From Cryobacterium algoricola (GTDB taxonomy: Bacteria; Actinomycetota; Actinomycetes; Actinomycetales; Microbacteriaceae), in assembly GCF_004402485.1 (NCBI RefSeq), contig NZ_SOFG01000004.1, forward strand, positions 558,001-622,000: DNA of 64,000 nucleotides, in the 5' to 3' direction. Below, in pieces: positions 37,500 through 43,305 of this stretch. The notes beneath the pieces were generated by a model. The model worked only from the letters and a program-made list of their open reading frames with translations. It was not told where the DNA came from and did no database searches. The stretch's first letter is position 1. Every line of letters starts with the position of its first letter. A program made the translations under genes and the position numbers.

Positions 37500-38936
37500 T
37501 TATCCTTCGAGATCGAAGTCCGCCCCCAACAGCCGCAGCTTGGTGATGAAGTTTTCGTAGCCGCGGCTGATGATTCCGACATTGCTGACCGTCGAGGTGC
37601 CCTCGGCGGTGAGCGCCGCGATCAGGTGGCTGAAGCCGCCGCGCAGGTCGGGAACCTCGATGTCGGCGCCGTGCAGCTTCGTCGGGCCCGCGATGACAGC
37701 GGAGTGGTTGAAGTTGCGCTGCCCGAAGCGGCACGGGTGGCCGCCGAGGCACTCGCGGTGGATCTGGATCGTCGCGCCCATCTCCACGAGGGCGTCGACG
37801 AAGCCGAACCGCTGCTCGTAGACGGTCTCGTGCACGATCGACACGCCATGGGCGTGAGTGAGGGCGATCACGAGCGGCTGCTGCCAGTCGGTCATGAAGC
37901 CGGGGTGCACATCGGTTTCGATGACGACGGGCTTGAGGTCACCTCCCGGGTGATAGAAGCGGATGCCGTCGTCGTGGATCTCGAAGGCGCCTCCGACCTT
38001 GCGGAACACGTTGAGGAAGGTCAGCATCTCGGACTGGCGGGCGCCGCCGACGAAGATGTCTCCGTCGGTCGCGAGCGCAGCGGCCGCCCAGCTCGCGGCC
38101 TCGTTCCGGTCGAAGAGGGCCCGGTGATTGAAGCCCTCGAGGCGTTCGACGCCCTCGATGCGGATCACCCGGTCGGTGTCGACCGTGATGATCGCACCCA
38201 TCTTCTGCAGGATGTTGATCAGGTCCATGATCTCGGGCTCGATCGCCGCGCCCTTGAGCTCGGTGATGCCCTCCGCGCGCACGGCCGTGAGCAGGACCTG
38301 CTCGGTCGCGCCGACGCTCGGGTACGGAAGGGAGACCTTGGCGCCGTGCAGCCCGTTCGGGGCGGACATCCGGATGCCGTTGGGCTGCTTGTCGACGACG
38401 GCGCCGAACTTGCGCAGCACCTCGAGGTGGAAGTCGATCGGCCGGTCGCCGATGCGGCATCCGCCGAGGTCGGGGATGAACGCCTCGCCGAGGCGGTGCA
38501 GGAGAGGCCCGCAGAAGAGGATCGGGATGCGGGAGGACCCGGCGTGCGCGTCGATCGCGGCGAAGTGCGCGCTCTCGACGTCGACGGGGTCGAGCAGCAG
38601 TTCGCCGGGCTCAGGGCCGTCCGTGACCTTGACCCCGTGCACCGCGAGCAGCTCGCGCACGATGCGCACGTCGCTGATGTTAGGCACGTTCTTCAGGATG
38701 CTCGGGCTCTCGCCGAGCAGGGAGGCGACCATGGCCTTGGTGACCAGGTTCTTCGCGCCCTTGAGTTCGATCCTGCCGATCAGCGGGATTCCGCCGCGAA
38801 TCGTGATCTTGTCGCCTTGCAGCCCCACAGCGGCCCCCCAGCTCTGCGCGTTCTCACGGTTTTGTTCGTCTTCGAGAAGCTGCGCCTTCACGGCTGCGTC
38901 TTCACGGTTCTGGGCGATCTCGCTGATGGTGCTCAC
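37500..38936 (-). CDS. murA: UDP-N-acetylglucosamine 1-carboxyvinyltransferase
   Basis: 478 residues. It is the first committed enzyme of peptidoglycan synthesis. [17 protein letters not shown] holds the conserved Lys and Asn. The active-site loop reads [11 protein letters not shown], so the catalytic position is Cys (fosfomycin-sensitive type) rather than the Asp found in mycobacteria. A polar N-terminal extension of about 45 residues rich in Glu/Gln/Asn is unusual. GTG at 38936 overlaps the leuD stop (GTGA), which supports this longer start. Confidence 0.93.
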
Positions 38937-39541
38937 AAACTTACCTGCCTTGCTGGAAGAGTACGGGGCCGCCACGGCTCCCGATGGGATTCGAATTCTG
39001 CGATCCGCGCTTCATCACGCAGGGTCAGGCCAATGTCGTCGAGGCCTTCGAGCAGGCGCCAACGGGTGTAGTCGTCGACCTGGAACGGGACGGTGAAATC
39101 GCCGACGCGTGCTGTACGCGCAACCAGATCGACGGTGAGTTCTATTCCCGGGTCGGCCTCGATGATGCTCCAGAGCCTCTGCGCGTCGTCCTCGGTGATC
39201 TGTGCGGCCAGCAGACCCTGCTTGCCGGCATTGCCGCGGAAGATGTCGCCGAACCGGGGGCAGAGCACGACGTCGAAGCCGTAGTCGCGCAGCGCCCAGA
39301 CGGCGTGTTCGCGGGAGGAACCCGTGCCGAAGTCCGCACCGGCGACGAGGATCCTGGCCTGTGCGTACTCCGGACGGTTCAGGACGAACTCGGGGTCGGT
39401 CCGCCACGCCGCGAAGAGGGCGTCTTCGAAACCGGTCTTGGTGACGCGCTTGAGGTAGACGGCGGGGATGATCTGGTCGGTGTCGACGTTGGAGCGGCGC
39501 AACGGCAGCGCGACGCCCGTGACGGTCATGAACTTGTCCAT
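38933..39541 (-). CDS. leuD: 3-isopropylmalate dehydratase small subunit
   Basis: 202 residues. Swivel-domain motifs [17 protein letters not shown] and [21 protein letters not shown] are diagnostic. With LeuC it isomerises 2- to 3-isopropylmalate in leucine synthesis. ATG at 39541 lies two bases after the leuC stop. Its stop overlaps murA. Confidence 0.95.
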
Positions 39542-39543
39542 GG

Positions 39544-41052
39544 TCAGAGTGCTCCATCCAGTGCCGGTGCCGCAGCAGGGGCCAGTTCGGCGGGGATCGC
39601 GTCGGCCGTGACGAGGCCGGCGGCGACCAGGTCCCAGGGGCTCGAGAGGGTGCCGCGGATCGCCGTTGCCGCCGCGACGAGCGGGGAGACCAGGTGGGTG
39701 CGCCCACCCTTGCCCTGGCGACCCTCGAAGTTGCGGTTGCTCGTCGAGGCGCACCGCTCGCCGGGGGCGAGCTGGTCGGGGTTCATGCCGAGGCACATCG
39801 AGCAGCCGGCGAAGCGCCATTCGGCGCCGAAGTCGGTGAAGATCTTGTCCAGGCCTTCGGCCTCGGCCTCGATCCGCACGCGTGCGGACCCGGGCACGAC
39901 CAGCATCCGCAGGCCCGGCGCCATGGTCTGGCCCTTGACGATTTCAGCGGCCGCACGCAGGTCTTCGACGCGGCTGTTGGTGCAGGAACCGAGGAAGACG
40001 GTGTCGACCCGGATGTCCTTCATGGGCGTGCCCGCCGCGAGGTCCATGTATTCGAGGGCGCGCTCGGCGGCGGCCCGCTCGTTGGCGTCGGCGACTCCGG
40101 CCGGATCGGGCACGGTCTCGCTCAGCGAGACGCCCTGGCCGGGGTTGGTGCCCCAGGTCACGAAGGGTTCGAGCGTGTCGGCGTCGAGAACGACCTCGGC
40201 GTCGAAGACGGCGCCCTCGTCGGTCGCGAGGGTCTCCCAGTACGCGACCGCGTCGTCCCAGTCCTGACCGGCCGGCGAGTGCGCGCGACCCTTCAGGTAG
40301 GCGTACGTCGTCGCATCCGGTGCGACCATGCCCGCGCGGGCACCGGCCTCGATCGACATGTTGCAGATGGTCATGCGGCCCTCCATCGAGAGGGCACGGA
40401 TGGCGCTGCCGCGGTATTCGAGCACATAGCCCTGGCCGCCGCCGGTACCGATCTTCGCGATCACGGCGAGGATCACGTCCTTGGCGGTCACGCCGGGGCG
40501 CAGGGTGCCGTCGACCGTGATGGCCATGGTCTTGAACGGCTGCAGCGGCAGGGTCTGGGTGGCCATGACGTGTTCGACCTCGCTCGTGCCGATGCCGAGG
40601 GCCATCGCCCCGAAGGCGCCATGCGTCGAGGTGTGCGAGTCACCGCAGACGACGGTGATGCCCGGCTGGGTGAGTCCGAGCTGCGGCCCAACGACGTGCA
40701 CGATGCCCTGCTCGATGTCGCCGAGCGAGTGGAGACGCACCCCGAATTCCTCGCAGTTGCGGCGGAGGGTCTCGATCTGGGTGCGGCTCGTCAGGTCCTT
40801 GATCGGCCGGTCGATGGCGAGCGTCGGAGTGTTGTGGTCCTCGGTCGCGATCGTCAGGTCCGGTCGGCGCAGCCGGCGCCCGGCGAGGCGCAGGCCGTCG
40901 AACGCCTGCGGGCTCGTGACCTCGTGCACGAGGTGCAGGTCGATGTAGATCAGGTCCGGGGTTCCATCGGAACCCTTGCTGACCAGGTGTTTGTCCCAGA
41001 CCTTCTCGGCCAGGGTGCGCGGGCGTTCGCCCGACATCGATGCGTTAGTCAT
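39544..41052 (-). CDS. leuC: 3-isopropylmalate dehydratase large subunit
   Basis: 502 residues. It is an aconitase-family [4Fe-4S] enzyme; cluster cysteines are in FLGSCTNSR and [19 protein letters not shown] and [13 protein letters not shown] are substrate-site motifs. ATG at 41052 follows GAGGAAG by ten bases; an ATG five codons later is possible. The upstream 115 nt contain a small leucine-rich frame and a hairpin (41098-41165) that look like an attenuator. Confidence 0.95.
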
Positions 41053-41097
41053 GTGTGTGCGTCTTCCTCAAGATTTGATGGCAGCCAACGACAGTCT

Positions 41098-41136
41098 CCG
41101 CGACGAGGGAGGCCTCAGAATTGGGACTCGTCGCGG
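41098..41136 (-). promoter_or_regulatory. Leader hairpin in the leuC 5' region
   Basis: On the minus strand CCGCGACGAG (41136-41127) and CTCGTCGCGG (41107-41098) form a perfect 10-bp stem. The 5' arm lies within the end of the leader peptide frame, directly after its leucine run. Ribosome position on the leader would thus decide whether the stem forms. Confidence 0.7.
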
Positions 41137-41165
41137 CAGAGAAGAAGGAGTCGACCGTACAGCAC
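41115..41165 (-). CDS. Candidate leucine leader peptide (attenuator) of leuC
   Basis: A 16-codon frame starting GTG at 41165 reads (V/M)LYGRLLLLCRDESQF and stops at TGA. Five of 16 codons are leucine, four of them in a row (CTC CTT CTT CTC), including two CTT codons, which are rare in this GC-rich genome. TAGCCT with a TG extension ends seven bases before the GTG, so it would be the first thing translated, without a leader. The leucine codon run is also complementary to the leuC ribosome binding region GAGGAAG (seven pairs, one G-U). This is the expected form of a leucine-responsive leader in front of leucine synthesis genes. Translation is not proven. Confidence 0.72.
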   Translation of the reverse strand: MLYGRLLLLCRDESQF

Positions 41166-41172
41166 TCGGACA

Positions 41173-41178
41173 GGCTAA
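41173..41178 (-). promoter_or_regulatory. Extended -10 of the leuC leader transcript
   Basis: TGTTAGCCT on the minus strand gives a TGn-extended -10. Seven bases separate it from the leader GTG. No good -35 is seen, as is usual for extended -10 promoters. Confidence 0.55.
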
Positions 41179-41205
41179 CACTTCGCGCCGAGTCTTCGCC
41201 GGAGG

Positions 41206-41973
41206 TCACGACGGTGACACGACCGATTCGACGAAGACGACCGTGACGTTGTCGTGCCCGCCGCGCGCGAGCGCCTCGTCGACGAGGGCGTCCACGACGG
41301 CCTGCTGGCCGTTGGGCTGCTGCTCGGTGAGGAGCCTCGAGATGTCGTCCGGCTCGAGCTCCTTGGTGAGGCCGTCGGAGCAGATCAGAAAGGCACGGTG
41401 ACCGGATGCCGGCACGAGCCAGACATCCGCGTCGACGAATTCATCGGTCCCGATCGCCCTCGTGATGATGTTCCGCTCGGGATGGAGTTCGGCTGACCGC
41501 GCCGTGATCAGCCCCGCGTCGACGAGTTCCTGCACCGCGGAGTGATCGACGGACAGCTGGGCCAGGTACACCCCATCCCAGGTGTAGATGCGGGAGTCGC
41601 CCACATTGAATGCCATCCAGTGCAGGCCGATATCCGCTCCGGCGTCGACGAAGGCCACGCCGGCCAGCGTCGTCCCGCTCACCGCGGCTCCGAAATCGTC
41701 TGCGCCGCTCAGGTCGCGCACCGCGTCGTTGGACGAGTGGATCGCGTCGAGGATACGTTCGGGCGTCGAGGGACGGCCGGACTCGATGTGTTCTTCGAAC
41801 ACCCGGAGGACGGTCTGGCTCGCCTCGTCGCCGTTGGCGTGCCCCCCCATCCCGTCGGCCACGAGGAAGACCGGAGAGTGAGCCATGAAGCTGTCCTCGT
41901 TGAGCTGCCGGACCCGGCCGACCTCGCTGCGCGCGCCCACACCGAACGAGATCGTCACCGTGGGGAGGGTCAT
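41206..41973 (-). CDS. PP2C-type Ser/Thr protein phosphatase
   Basis: 255 residues. Metal-binding motifs of the PPM family are present: VRQLNEDSF, VADGMGGHANGDEAS, NVGDSRIY and CSDGLTKEL, then HDNVTVVFVE. There are no extra domains, so it resembles the soluble PstP-like catalytic module without the membrane helix. It would dephosphorylate targets of Ser/Thr kinases. ATG at 41973 is preferred; a TTG seven codons earlier would add MVQSADT. Confidence 0.9.
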   Translation of the reverse strand: MTLPTVTISFGVGARSEVGRVRQLNEDSFMAHSPVFLVADGMGGHANGDEASQTVLRVFEEHIESGRPSTPERILDAIHSSNDAVRDLSGADDFGAAVSGTTLAGVAFVDAGADIGLHWMAFNVGDSRIYTWDGVYLAQLSVDHSAVQELVDAGLITARSAELHPERNIITRAIGTDEFVDADVWLVPASGHRAFLICSDGLTKELEPDDISRLLTEQQPNGQQAVVDALVDEALARGGHDNVTVVFVESVVSPS

Positions 41974-42119
41974 CGTGTCCGCGCTCTGGACCAAACCGGT
42001 GCTCCCTCGTCCTGCGGCGCGTGTTCCGAGCCGGCCCGATCGCGCCTCGACGAGGCGTCAGAGATCCACGGTACCAATTCGGGGGGCTTTTCGCGTCGCC
42101 CCGGCACGGTGCGACCGCG

Positions 42120-43145
42120 TTACTCCTTCTCGGTGAGCGACAGCTCCTCGCCGAGACTGTGGCCGCGTGCGCGGGCGTCGCGGTTCGCCTTGATCAGGCT
42201 CGCGATCGTGGCGACGGCCATCGAGACGACGATCACGCCGAGCGACGTCCAGGTGTCGATCTCCGGAGCCCAGCCCACACCGTGGCCGCCGTTGATGAAG
42301 GGGACCTCGTTGGTGTGGAGCGCATGTGAGACGAGCTTGACGCCGATGAAGAACAGGATGAAAGCGATGCCGTACTTGAGGTACACCAGTCGTTCGAGCA
42401 ACCCGCCGAGCAGGAAGTAGAGCTGCCGCAGTCCCATCAGGGCGAACACGTTGGCCGTGAACACGATGAACGGGCTCGTCGTGATTCCGAAGATGGCGGG
42501 GATCGAGTCGAGGGCGAACACGAGGTCCGTCGTGCCGATGGCGATGAACACGATCAGCATCGGGGTGAAGACCCGGCGGCCCATGACGGTGGTGCGGATC
42601 TTCGACCCGTCGAAGGTCGGGGAGATCCTGAGGCGGCGGCGGATCATCTTCACGAAGGCGTTGTCGGCCTCGTTCGCATCCGGTTCCTTGGCTACGGCCT
42701 GATGCACGGCCGTGTACAGGAGGAAGGCGCCGAAGATATAGAAGATCCAACTGAAGTTCTCGATCAGCGAGGCGCCGAGAAGAATGAAGATCAGGCGGAG
42801 GACGAGCGCGATGATGATGCCCACCATGAGCACCTCCTGCTGGTATTTCCGCGGCACGGAGAATCTCGCCATTATGATCACGAAGACGAAGAGATTGTCG
42901 ATGCTGAGGCTGTACTCGGTGAGCCAGCCGGCGAGGAACTGTCCGGCGTGCTCGGCATCGGCCAGGAGCAGCATCGCGAGCGCGAACAGCAGCGCGAGCA
43001 CGACGTAGAAGACGACCCACAGGCTGGCCTCGCGCATCGAGGGAACGTGCGGTCGCTTGTACACGATCAGCAGGTCGCCGACCAGGACGAGGGTCAGGAG
43101 GACCAGGGAACCGATTTCGAACCAGAGGGGCAGGGCAAGATCCAC
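42120..43145 (-). CDS. terC: TerC-family membrane protein (probable metal exporter)
   Basis: 341 residues with about nine membrane helices. Conserved acidic residues sit in SLSIDNLFVFVIIM and TTDLVFALDSIPAIFGITTSPFIVFTAN. TerC/Alx/MeeF-type proteins take part in manganese efflux or metal loading during secretion. GTG at 43145 has AAAGG eight bases ahead. A yybP-ykoY-like RNA precedes it, which supports control by manganese. Confidence 0.9.
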   Translation of the reverse strand: MDLALPLWFEIGSLVLLTLVLVGDLLIVYKRPHVPSMREASLWVVFYVVLALLFALAMLLLADAEHAGQFLAGWLTEYSLSIDNLFVFVIIMARFSVPRKYQQEVLMVGIIIALVLRLIFILLGASLIENFSWIFYIFGAFLLYTAVHQAVAKEPDANEADNAFVKMIRRRLRISPTFDGSKIRTTVMGRRVFTPMLIVFIAIGTTDLVFALDSIPAIFGITTSPFIVFTANVFALMGLRQLYFLLGGLLERLVYLKYGIAFILFFIGVKLVSHALHTNEVPFINGGHGVGWAPEIDTWTSLGVIVVSMAVATIASLIKANRDARARGHSLGEELSLTEKE

Positions 43146-43179
43146 GGAGGGGCCTTTCGAGGGAAGGAGGGCAGGCAGG

Positions 43180-43305
43180 AAACCTGAAAGTCTCTCCCGC
43201 GACGAATGCACGCCGCCGATCCGACCGGAACCCCTGCGCCGCGGTCCGTGTTGACGATCAGATCATCAGACCCAGTGGGTCCTGAGGGATACTCCCCTTC
43301 ACGGG
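43180..43305 (-). ncRNA. yybP-ykoY-type (manganese) riboswitch
   Basis: On the minus strand the leader begins AAGGGGAGTATCCC just after the predicted transcription start and ends with GGGAGAGACTTTCAGG, the 5' and 3' landmarks of actinobacterial yybP-ykoY RNAs. The middle has GATCGTCAACACGG. It lies between a -10 (43310-43315) and terC, a standard target gene. The class senses Mn2+; the match was made by eye. Confidence 0.7.

What the first reader, a model, noticed from the sequence alone, without database searches (positions are those of the whole stretch)
41098..41178. Leucine-codon leader peptide with hairpin in front of leuC
Directly upstream of leuC a 16-codon frame contains a run CTC CTT CTT CTC plus one more Leu codon, begins seven bases after an extended -10, and ends inside a perfect 10-bp stem. 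The leucine run is also complementary to the leuC ribosome binding region GAGGAAG (seven pairs, one G-U). This suggests that a ribosome stalled for lack of charged tRNA-Leu both opens the stem and frees the binding site, so control could act on translation as well as termination. The leader itself looks leaderless, which is an unusual way to start an attenuator. Frame, codons and stem are seen; the mechanism is inferred from classic attenuators.
Basis: partly seen in the sequence, partly recalled or inferred. Interest (0 to 1): 0.78.

Follow-up and report, generated by a model that had tools for sequence, protein, structure and literature searches.

The report
Leucine-sensing leader switch before leuC
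Just before leuC, a leucine-making gene, this bacterium has a 16-codon leucine-rich leader with a hairpin that matches one in front of its own leuA gene, and it likely lets leuC be translated when leucine runs short.

Summary
On the minus strand, 16 codons (GTG 41165 to TGA 41115) with CTC-CTT-CTT-CTC precede leuC. TAGCCT begins 12 nt before the GTG, the stop lies in the loop of a perfect 10-bp stem, and the Leu run can pair with the leuC ribosome-binding site. It is a LEU element, described in 2005 upstream of leuA in Actinobacteria; this genome has two strong copies, before leuC and leuA. Among the best 80 leuC loci the leuC copy occurs in 18 of 25 Microbacteriaceae and 0 of 55 others; my literature searches listed no report of it. 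Across 201 fetched elements, stem and pseudoknot co-vary and the Leu run co-varies with the downstream Shine-Dalgarno. Start codons sit 12-13 nt after TAnnnT in 175 of 199 leaders (background 0.3%). Related elements precede a second leuA and, with Val/Ile/Leu codons, leuB. No terminator was found, so translational control is favoured. Against: folding predicts little effect in this copy, and published leuA mutants did not fit attenuation. New member of a known kind; mechanism inferred.

The parts
41172..41180 (-). extended -10 (TGT TAGCCT); its TA begins 12 nt before the GTG
   Evidence: sequence; TAnnnT at 12 or 13 nt in 54 of 54 leuC leaders and 175 of 199 leaders of all classes vs 50 of 16066 other ATG/GTG
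41115..41165 (-). leader ORF, GTG start, MLYGRLLLLCRDESQF then TGA; predicted leaderless
   Evidence: leaders found in 199 of 201 elements, 54 of them leuC
41139..41150 (-). leucine run CTC CTT CTT CTC
   Evidence: CTT is 49% of leader Leu codons but 2% of Leu codons in the downstream genes
41127..41136 (-). 5' arm of the 10-bp stem CCGCGACGAG
   Evidence: 5 of 10 pairs with double changes in A3
41098..41107 (-). 3' arm of the 10-bp stem CTCGTCGCGG
41111..41114 (-). predicted pseudoknot arm in the loop, GGCC
   Evidence: loop/downstream co-variation in 201 elements
41083..41086 (-). predicted pseudoknot partner GGCT downstream of the stem (4 pairs, one G-U)
   Evidence: the shortest helix class, seen in 47 of 201 elements
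41062..41069 (-). leuC Shine-Dalgarno region GAGGAAGA, complementary to the Leu run (8 pairs, one G-U)
   Evidence: Leu-run/SD co-variation, n 184
39544..41052 (-). leuC, 3-isopropylmalate dehydratase large subunit
   Evidence: NCBIfam NF004016 785.8 bits, TIGR00170 732.9 bits
38933..39565 (-). leuD, small subunit, next gene after leuC (its start codon was not fixed)
   Evidence: NCBIfam NF002458 263 bits

Best explanation
This is a LEU element in front of leuC: a leader ORF with a leucine run, placed where transcription is predicted to start, followed by a 10-bp stem and a predicted pseudoknot, whose leucine codons are complementary to the leuC Shine-Dalgarno and so likely act both as leucine sensor and as lid on that site. 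When charged tRNA-Leu is plentiful, ribosomes are expected to run through to the stop codon in the stem's loop and leave; the leader then would refold with the Leu run on the Shine-Dalgarno, and leuC would stay low. When it is scarce, a ribosome stalled on the run would hide the lid, the stem and pseudoknot would form ahead of it, and the exposed Shine-Dalgarno would let leuC, and likely leuD with it, be translated. Shown directly: the frame, the codons, the stem, the complementarity, the second copy at leuA, the conservation and the co-variation. Inferred: the start site, translation of the leader, stalling, and the direction of the response.
For: Same element before leuA in this genome. At least one in 191 of 199 family genomes and 275 of 295 class genomes of completeness at least 95%. 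leuC copy in 18 of 25 Microbacteriaceae leuC loci, 0 of 55 others, of the best 80. In 201 elements a best-pair search gives 10 of 10 stem pairs in 191 and 9 of 10 in 10; 5 of 10 pairs carry double changes in 77 rows, 0 of 500 shuffles. Pseudoknot arms match their own partner better than others' (z -8.0; controls +0.7, -1.9), and so do Leu run and SD (z -6.5, n 184; controls -1.6, -0.2, +0.2, +2.1). Thinned to 50 and 42: z -4.8 and -3.5. Leaderless geometry in 175 of 199 leaders, 54 of 54 for leuC. Where an extended -10 is found (122 of 201), its distance to the stem is in one phase in 103. leuB elements keep stem, pseudoknot and leader but carry Val/Ile/Leu codons. With the Leu run masked, the predicted open fraction of the SD rises in 156 of 179 elements.
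Against: In the window's own copy the folding model gives no clear switch: SD unpaired 0.54 free, 0.43 with the run masked; with stem and pseudoknot imposed, 0.32 and 0.39, and swapped Leu segments close the site better (0.19) than the natural one. In the family, natural segments close the SD hardly more than swapped ones (leuA 0.22 vs 0.25, leuC 0.27 vs 0.27, leuA2 0.23 vs 0.27). By class, the pseudoknot test is weaker in leuC (16 of 300 shuffles as good) and leuA2 (13 of 300), and the SD test fails in leuA2 (41 of 300). For leuC alone after thinning (n 10) SD co-variation is not seen (z -0.4) and the pseudoknot is weak (z -2.1); at the strictest thinning (n 10 and 9) neither is seen. 7 of 25 Microbacteriaceae leuC loci lack the element. 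In S. coelicolor, leuA leader mutations did not behave as classical attenuation (Craster 1999, as reported in PMC1262725). Permutation values overstate significance because the sequences are related; one SD control also drifts (z -1.9).
Confidence: 0.6

Rival explanations
1. [quoted passage not shown] the leader ORF is not the sensor. This was the preferred view of the paper that named it.
For: PMC1262725 (text read in full) reports that Leu codon changes in S. coelicolor leuA did not fit attenuation, and proposes a helicase-domain protein as binder. The stem is highly conserved (5 of 10 pairs never vary in A3).
Against: Leaders keep 3-4 Leu codons in a run in 181 of 185 leuA/leuA2/leuC elements, stay in one phase with the extended -10 (103 of 122), and carry Val/Ile/Leu codons before leuB while stem and pseudoknot stay. 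The pseudoknot sequence varies with compensation.
Confidence: 0.15
2. Transcription control: stalling on, or completion of, the leader decides whether the transcript ends before leuC, by Rho or otherwise.
For: Leader peptides with terminators are reported upstream of ilvB and leuS in the same phylum (PMC1262725; PMC8079986, passages). In the 7 of 14 leuB-type elements measured, leuB starts 165-513 nt after the stem (rough starts), too far for the close SD pairing.
Against: No terminator-like site at this locus; at least 5 T in the 8 nt after the stem in only 16 of 201 elements. The stem-to-start spacing is tight for leuC (quartiles 44-47 nt) and the run co-varies with the SD. Rho was not testable.
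Confidence: 0.17
3. Conserved RNA of another role, such as mRNA stability or plain translation start efficiency, with a leader that is translated but does not sense leucine.
For: Much of the conserved sequence is structural; rare CTT codons could be kept only for pairing.
Against: The 201 counted copies all precede genes of leucine synthesis (leuA 113, leuC 54, leuA2 20, leuB 14; three weak hits with no such gene were dropped beforehand), with codons for branched-chain amino acids.
Confidence: 0.08

Closest known systems
LEU element upstream of leuA in Actinobacteria (Seliverstov et al. 2005, PMC1262725)
   Same: Leader ORF with Leu run, pseudoknot, and a base stem of Leu run with the Shine-Dalgarno of the next gene. 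One model finds leuC and leuA copies.
   Different: Here the gene is leuC. The paper describes leuA, plus one transposase gene.
Leaderless leader peptides of Streptomyces lividans (leuL1, leuL2, ilvL and others; PMC8079986, passages)
   Same: Start codon at the 5' end of the transcript, Leu codons, and no typical terminator for leuL1.
   Different: None of the eight listed is before leuC. There the starts come from RNA-seq; here the start is predicted from the -10.
Polycysteine leaderless attenuators of mycobacteria (Canestrari 2020; title seen in reference lists only)
   Same: By its title, leaderless short ORFs with a codon run for the pathway's amino acid.
   Different: Cysteine, not leucine. 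I did not read the paper.
Classical leu and trp attenuators of enterobacteria (recalled)
   Same: A ribosome stalled on a codon run changes the RNA fold downstream.
   Different: Those act through an intrinsic terminator, which is not seen here.

Membership tests
LEU element | upstream ORF with a run of Leu codons | tested here: met
   window 41165-41115, CTC CTT CTT CTC
LEU element | hairpin plus pseudoknot | tested here: met
   10-bp stem; GGCC/GGCT pseudoknot of only 4 pairs here; co-variation in the family
LEU element | base stem between the Leu run and the Shine-Dalgarno of the next gene | tested here: met
   8 complementary pairs with one G-U at 41069-41062; co-variation n 184. Folding does not clearly favour it in this copy
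[quoted passage not shown]
   the figures of the paper are not held; other folds appear but were not compared
LEU element | homology to the published leuA copies | tested here: met
   one model finds leuC and leuA copies; L297 encodes the published S. lividans leuL1 peptide. The paper's own alignment could not be compared
classical transcription attenuator | intrinsic terminator competing with an antiterminator | tested here: not met
   no terminator-like site in 40900-41400
leaderless leader peptide | start codon at the 5' end of the transcript | tested here: inconclusive
   -10 placed for a start at the GTG (54 of 54 leuC leaders); no 5' end data
known Rfam riboswitch, T-box or leader | match to a family model | tested here: not met
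   no match in the window at gathering score, nor up to E 1 in 40990-41240; in 8 other loci only a tRNA in L097, away from the element

The most novel reading that the evidence does not exclude
The LEU element is a portable codon-reading pseudoknot: one leaderless module found in front of leuA, a second leuA, leuC and leuB, with the sensed codons swapped (Leu run, or Val/Ile/Leu before leuB). In the leuA and leuC types the rare CTT-rich Leu codons are at once the sensor and the lid on the Shine-Dalgarno, giving a terminator-free leucine switch over the whole pathway.
Probability: 0.4. Interest if true: 0.72.

Novelty: new member of a known kind. Interest (0 to 1): 0.5.

Why it matters
How the LEU element works has been open since 1999-2005, when leuA leader mutants did not fit attenuation and a protein-binding role was proposed. 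Copies before leuC and leuB give a natural codon-swap experiment, and pairing of the sensor codons with the Shine-Dalgarno could explain why codon mutants mislead: changing the codons would also change the lid. It also would extend a leuA element to a leucine regulon in a large bacterial family.

Tried and rejected
Terminator-based control was set aside for lack of a terminator. A recent within-genome copy from leuA was rejected: same-genome leuA/leuC identity 70.5% against 68.8% between genomes, and the own-genome leuA is the best leuA match for 1 of 30 leuC copies. A folding argument for the window's own switch failed, and swapped Leu segments did not separate from natural ones. A first pattern search upstream of leuC missed two Agromyces copies that the model found. 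A first choice of downstream start codons was wrong for some loci and was redone. Three weak hits (L239, L313, L317), with no leucine gene seen downstream, were dropped before the counts of 201; L239 is still in alignment A3. Four extra own-genome hits at 20-23 bits were not followed. The 201 elements are the ones fetched, not all hits, and lean to high scores and to genomes with two or more copies. The 16 seed elements from relatives were picked with a TAnnnT upstream, and a leader with TAnnnT was preferred where several starts fitted (1.35 in-frame starts per leader on average). Literature searches listed no paper that I recognised as reporting a leuC element; only the open library was searched and most listed papers were not opened.

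Full report
What is there. On the minus strand, upstream of leuC (ATG 41052), the sequence reads TGT-TAGCCT (41180-41172), six bases, then a GTG frame of 16 codons, MLYGRLLLLCRDESQF, ending with TGA at 41117-41115. Codons 6-9 are CTC CTT CTT CTC. A 10-bp stem without mismatch (41136-41127 with 41107-41098) encloses the stop codon in its loop. GAGGAAGA (41069-41062), the Shine-Dalgarno region of leuC, is complementary to UUCUUCUC of the run (8 pairs, one G-U). leuC, leuD and murA follow one another on this strand. No terminator-like site lies in 40900-41400 and no Rfam family matches.

A second copy. A DNA search of the same genome found one other place, 83% identical over the leader region. 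It lies directly before leuA (2-isopropylmalate synthase), with the leader VLFGQLLLRCRDES. A covariance model from 18 elements (17 upstream of leuC including this one, and this genome's leuA copy) gives these two hits in the genome and nothing else above 22.6 bits (94.4 and 86.9 bits). Both are in the model, so their scores are not independent; the gap to the next hit and the DNA search are.

What it is. The architecture is the LEU element of Seliverstov et al. 2005 (PMC1262725; text read in full; figures not held): leader ORF with Leu codons, pseudoknot, and a base stem of the Leu run with the Shine-Dalgarno, described before leuA.

Distribution. 191 of 199 family genomes have at least one element; by my hand count of that listing 125 have two or more. 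In the order, 224 of 297, and in the class, 275 of 295 genomes have one (completeness at least 95%, drawn from wider groups, overlapping). One search kept the best 80 leuC loci of a longer, capped list: the element is upstream in 18 of 25 Microbacteriaceae (Cryobacterium, Glaciibacter, Agromyces, Leifsonia, Microbacterium, Terrimesophilobacter, Leucobacter, Rathayibacter and a MAG; not found in Curtobacterium, Salinibacterium, Rhodoluna, two Agrococcus and two uncultured members) and in 0 of 55 others. Among 79 fetched elements from outside the family, none is before leuC (leuA 54, leuB 14, leuA2 11). The leuC copy is thus likely an old duplication inside the family: same-genome leuA and leuC copies are hardly closer than copies of different genomes (70.5 vs 68.8%, 30 genomes).

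Other genes. All 87 elements of the first set lie before leuA or leuC by tblastn to this genome's proteins. In 8 of the 11 genomes with three copies the third was fetched, and it precedes a leuA-like gene about 54-56% identical, one of which was checked and is 2-isopropylmalate synthase. I call genes under 57.5% identity leuA2; there are 20. In the wider sets 14 elements precede leuB (one checked), with leaders such as MAQRFVILTRRGEFR or MRSVFVLIDCRGEA: on average 1.5 Leu but 4.4 branched-chain codons, against 3.9-4.0 Leu in the other classes.

Tests on 201 elements. Stem: a best-pair search gives 10 of 10 pairs in 191 and 9 of 10 in 10. In A3 (77 distinct rows, one of them the dropped L239; aligned to this structure, so leaning to it) 5 pairs have double changes (0 of 500 shuffles); pairing is 99.6%, and sliding the partner gives 28.7-36.4% at one column, 43.8-49.8% at two, 60.2-69.1% at three. 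Pseudoknot: the loop pairs better with its own downstream partner than with that of others in the same gene class (z -8.0; controls +0.7, -1.9), with helices as different as GGCC/GGCT, CTAAGCC/GGCTTAG, GACCGGC/GCCGGTC and GTCAGCC/GGCTGAC. By class in a first version the count of shuffles as good was leuA 0, leuC 16, leuA2 13, leuB 0 of 300. Leu run and Shine-Dalgarno: z -6.5 (n 184), four controls between -1.6 and +2.1; by class in the first version leuA 0, leuC 0, leuA2 41 of 300. After thinning to less than 75% identity the effects remain (z -4.8, n 50; z -3.5, n 42; controls -0.1 and -1.9), but for leuC alone (n 10) the Shine-Dalgarno effect is gone (z -0.4) and the pseudoknot weak (z -2.1); at 68% (n 10 and 9) neither is seen.

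Leaderless start. TAnnnT begins 12 or 13 nt before the start codon in 175 of 199 leaders (54 of 54 for leuC), against 50 of 16066 other ATG/GTG in the same loci. Independent of the ORF call, an extended -10 is found in 122 of 201 elements and its distance to the stem falls in one phase in 103 of them. The stop lies 13 nt after the stem's first base in 141 of 199, 16 nt in 27 and 19 nt in 27, the window among the last.

Codons. CTT makes 355 of 729 leader Leu codons (49%) but 124 of 5364 (2%) in 183 downstream genes, and the last Leu of the run is CTT in 167 of 185. This fits pairing with the Shine-Dalgarno, or slow or special decoding; the two are not separated here.

Mechanism. With the leader up to the stem masked as if by a stalled ribosome, the predicted open fraction of the Shine-Dalgarno rises from 0.20 to 0.49 (leuA, 109), 0.24 to 0.48 (leuC, 52) and 0.32 to 0.54 (leuA2, 18), in 156 of 179 elements. 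With stem and pseudoknot imposed it rises in 150 of 170. The window's own copy does not show it (0.54 to 0.43, or 0.32 to 0.39), and swapped Leu segments close the site about as well as natural ones in the family and better in this copy (0.19 against 0.32). The proposed switch therefore rests on the family, not on this copy's calculated fold. The leuB type lacks the close run/Shine-Dalgarno geometry (165-513 nt from stem to leuB in the 7 measured of 14, rough starts) and may act in another way.

Against known work. PMC1262725 preferred a protein-binding role because of the S. coelicolor mutants (Craster 1999, known to me only through that text). Conserved reading phase, the codon swap before leuB and the start codon at the predicted 5' end speak for a translated sensor. 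My searches of the open library listed no paper that I recognised as reporting a leuC element. Other papers (PMC5784534, PMC4046766, PMC3890552, PMC13236596, PMC9094748) were seen in passages only; the three on Corynebacterium mention a leuA leader.

Verdict. Observation confirmed; interpretation partly supported; new member of a known kind.

Noticed in passing
L230-L232, L234-L237 (elements at about 1501-1600): LEU-like elements upstream of leuB with branched-chain leaders such as MAQRFVILTRRGEFR; in all seven a related small ORF (for example MSEEAQKARQALQESMDLREQGHSDD) lies between element and leuB; this one matches no NCBIfam family.
   Followed up: partly
L287, L295, L305, L306, L309, L311, L315: Further leuB-type elements elsewhere in the class, 165-513 nt from stem to leuB (rough starts), with leaders such as MRSVFVLIDCRGEA; their output cannot be the close Shine-Dalgarno pairing.
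   Followed up: partly
L137, L138, L141-L146; also L225, L227-L229, L238 and seven in A4: A second leuA-like gene (about 52-57% identical to leuA) carries its own element, often with a different stem and a longer pseudoknot (GACCGGC/GCCGGTC).
   Followed up: partly
leader Leu codons in 185 elements: CTT, rare in the downstream genes (2%), is nearly half of the leader Leu codons and 90% of the last ones; pairing and decoding explanations are not separated.
   Followed up: partly
window 37500-41052: leuC, leuD and murA lie in a row on one strand, so a leucine switch might also touch a cell-wall gene if they share a transcript.
   Followed up: no
window 41206-41994: A PP2C-type phosphatase gene ends 25 bases before the extended -10 of the leader; its match to Stp1 (192.9 bits) is under the curated cut-off of 230.
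   Followed up: no
window 42120-43211: TerC/Alx-family membrane protein gene (TIGR03718, 369.6 bits) upstream of the phosphatase gene.
   Followed up: no
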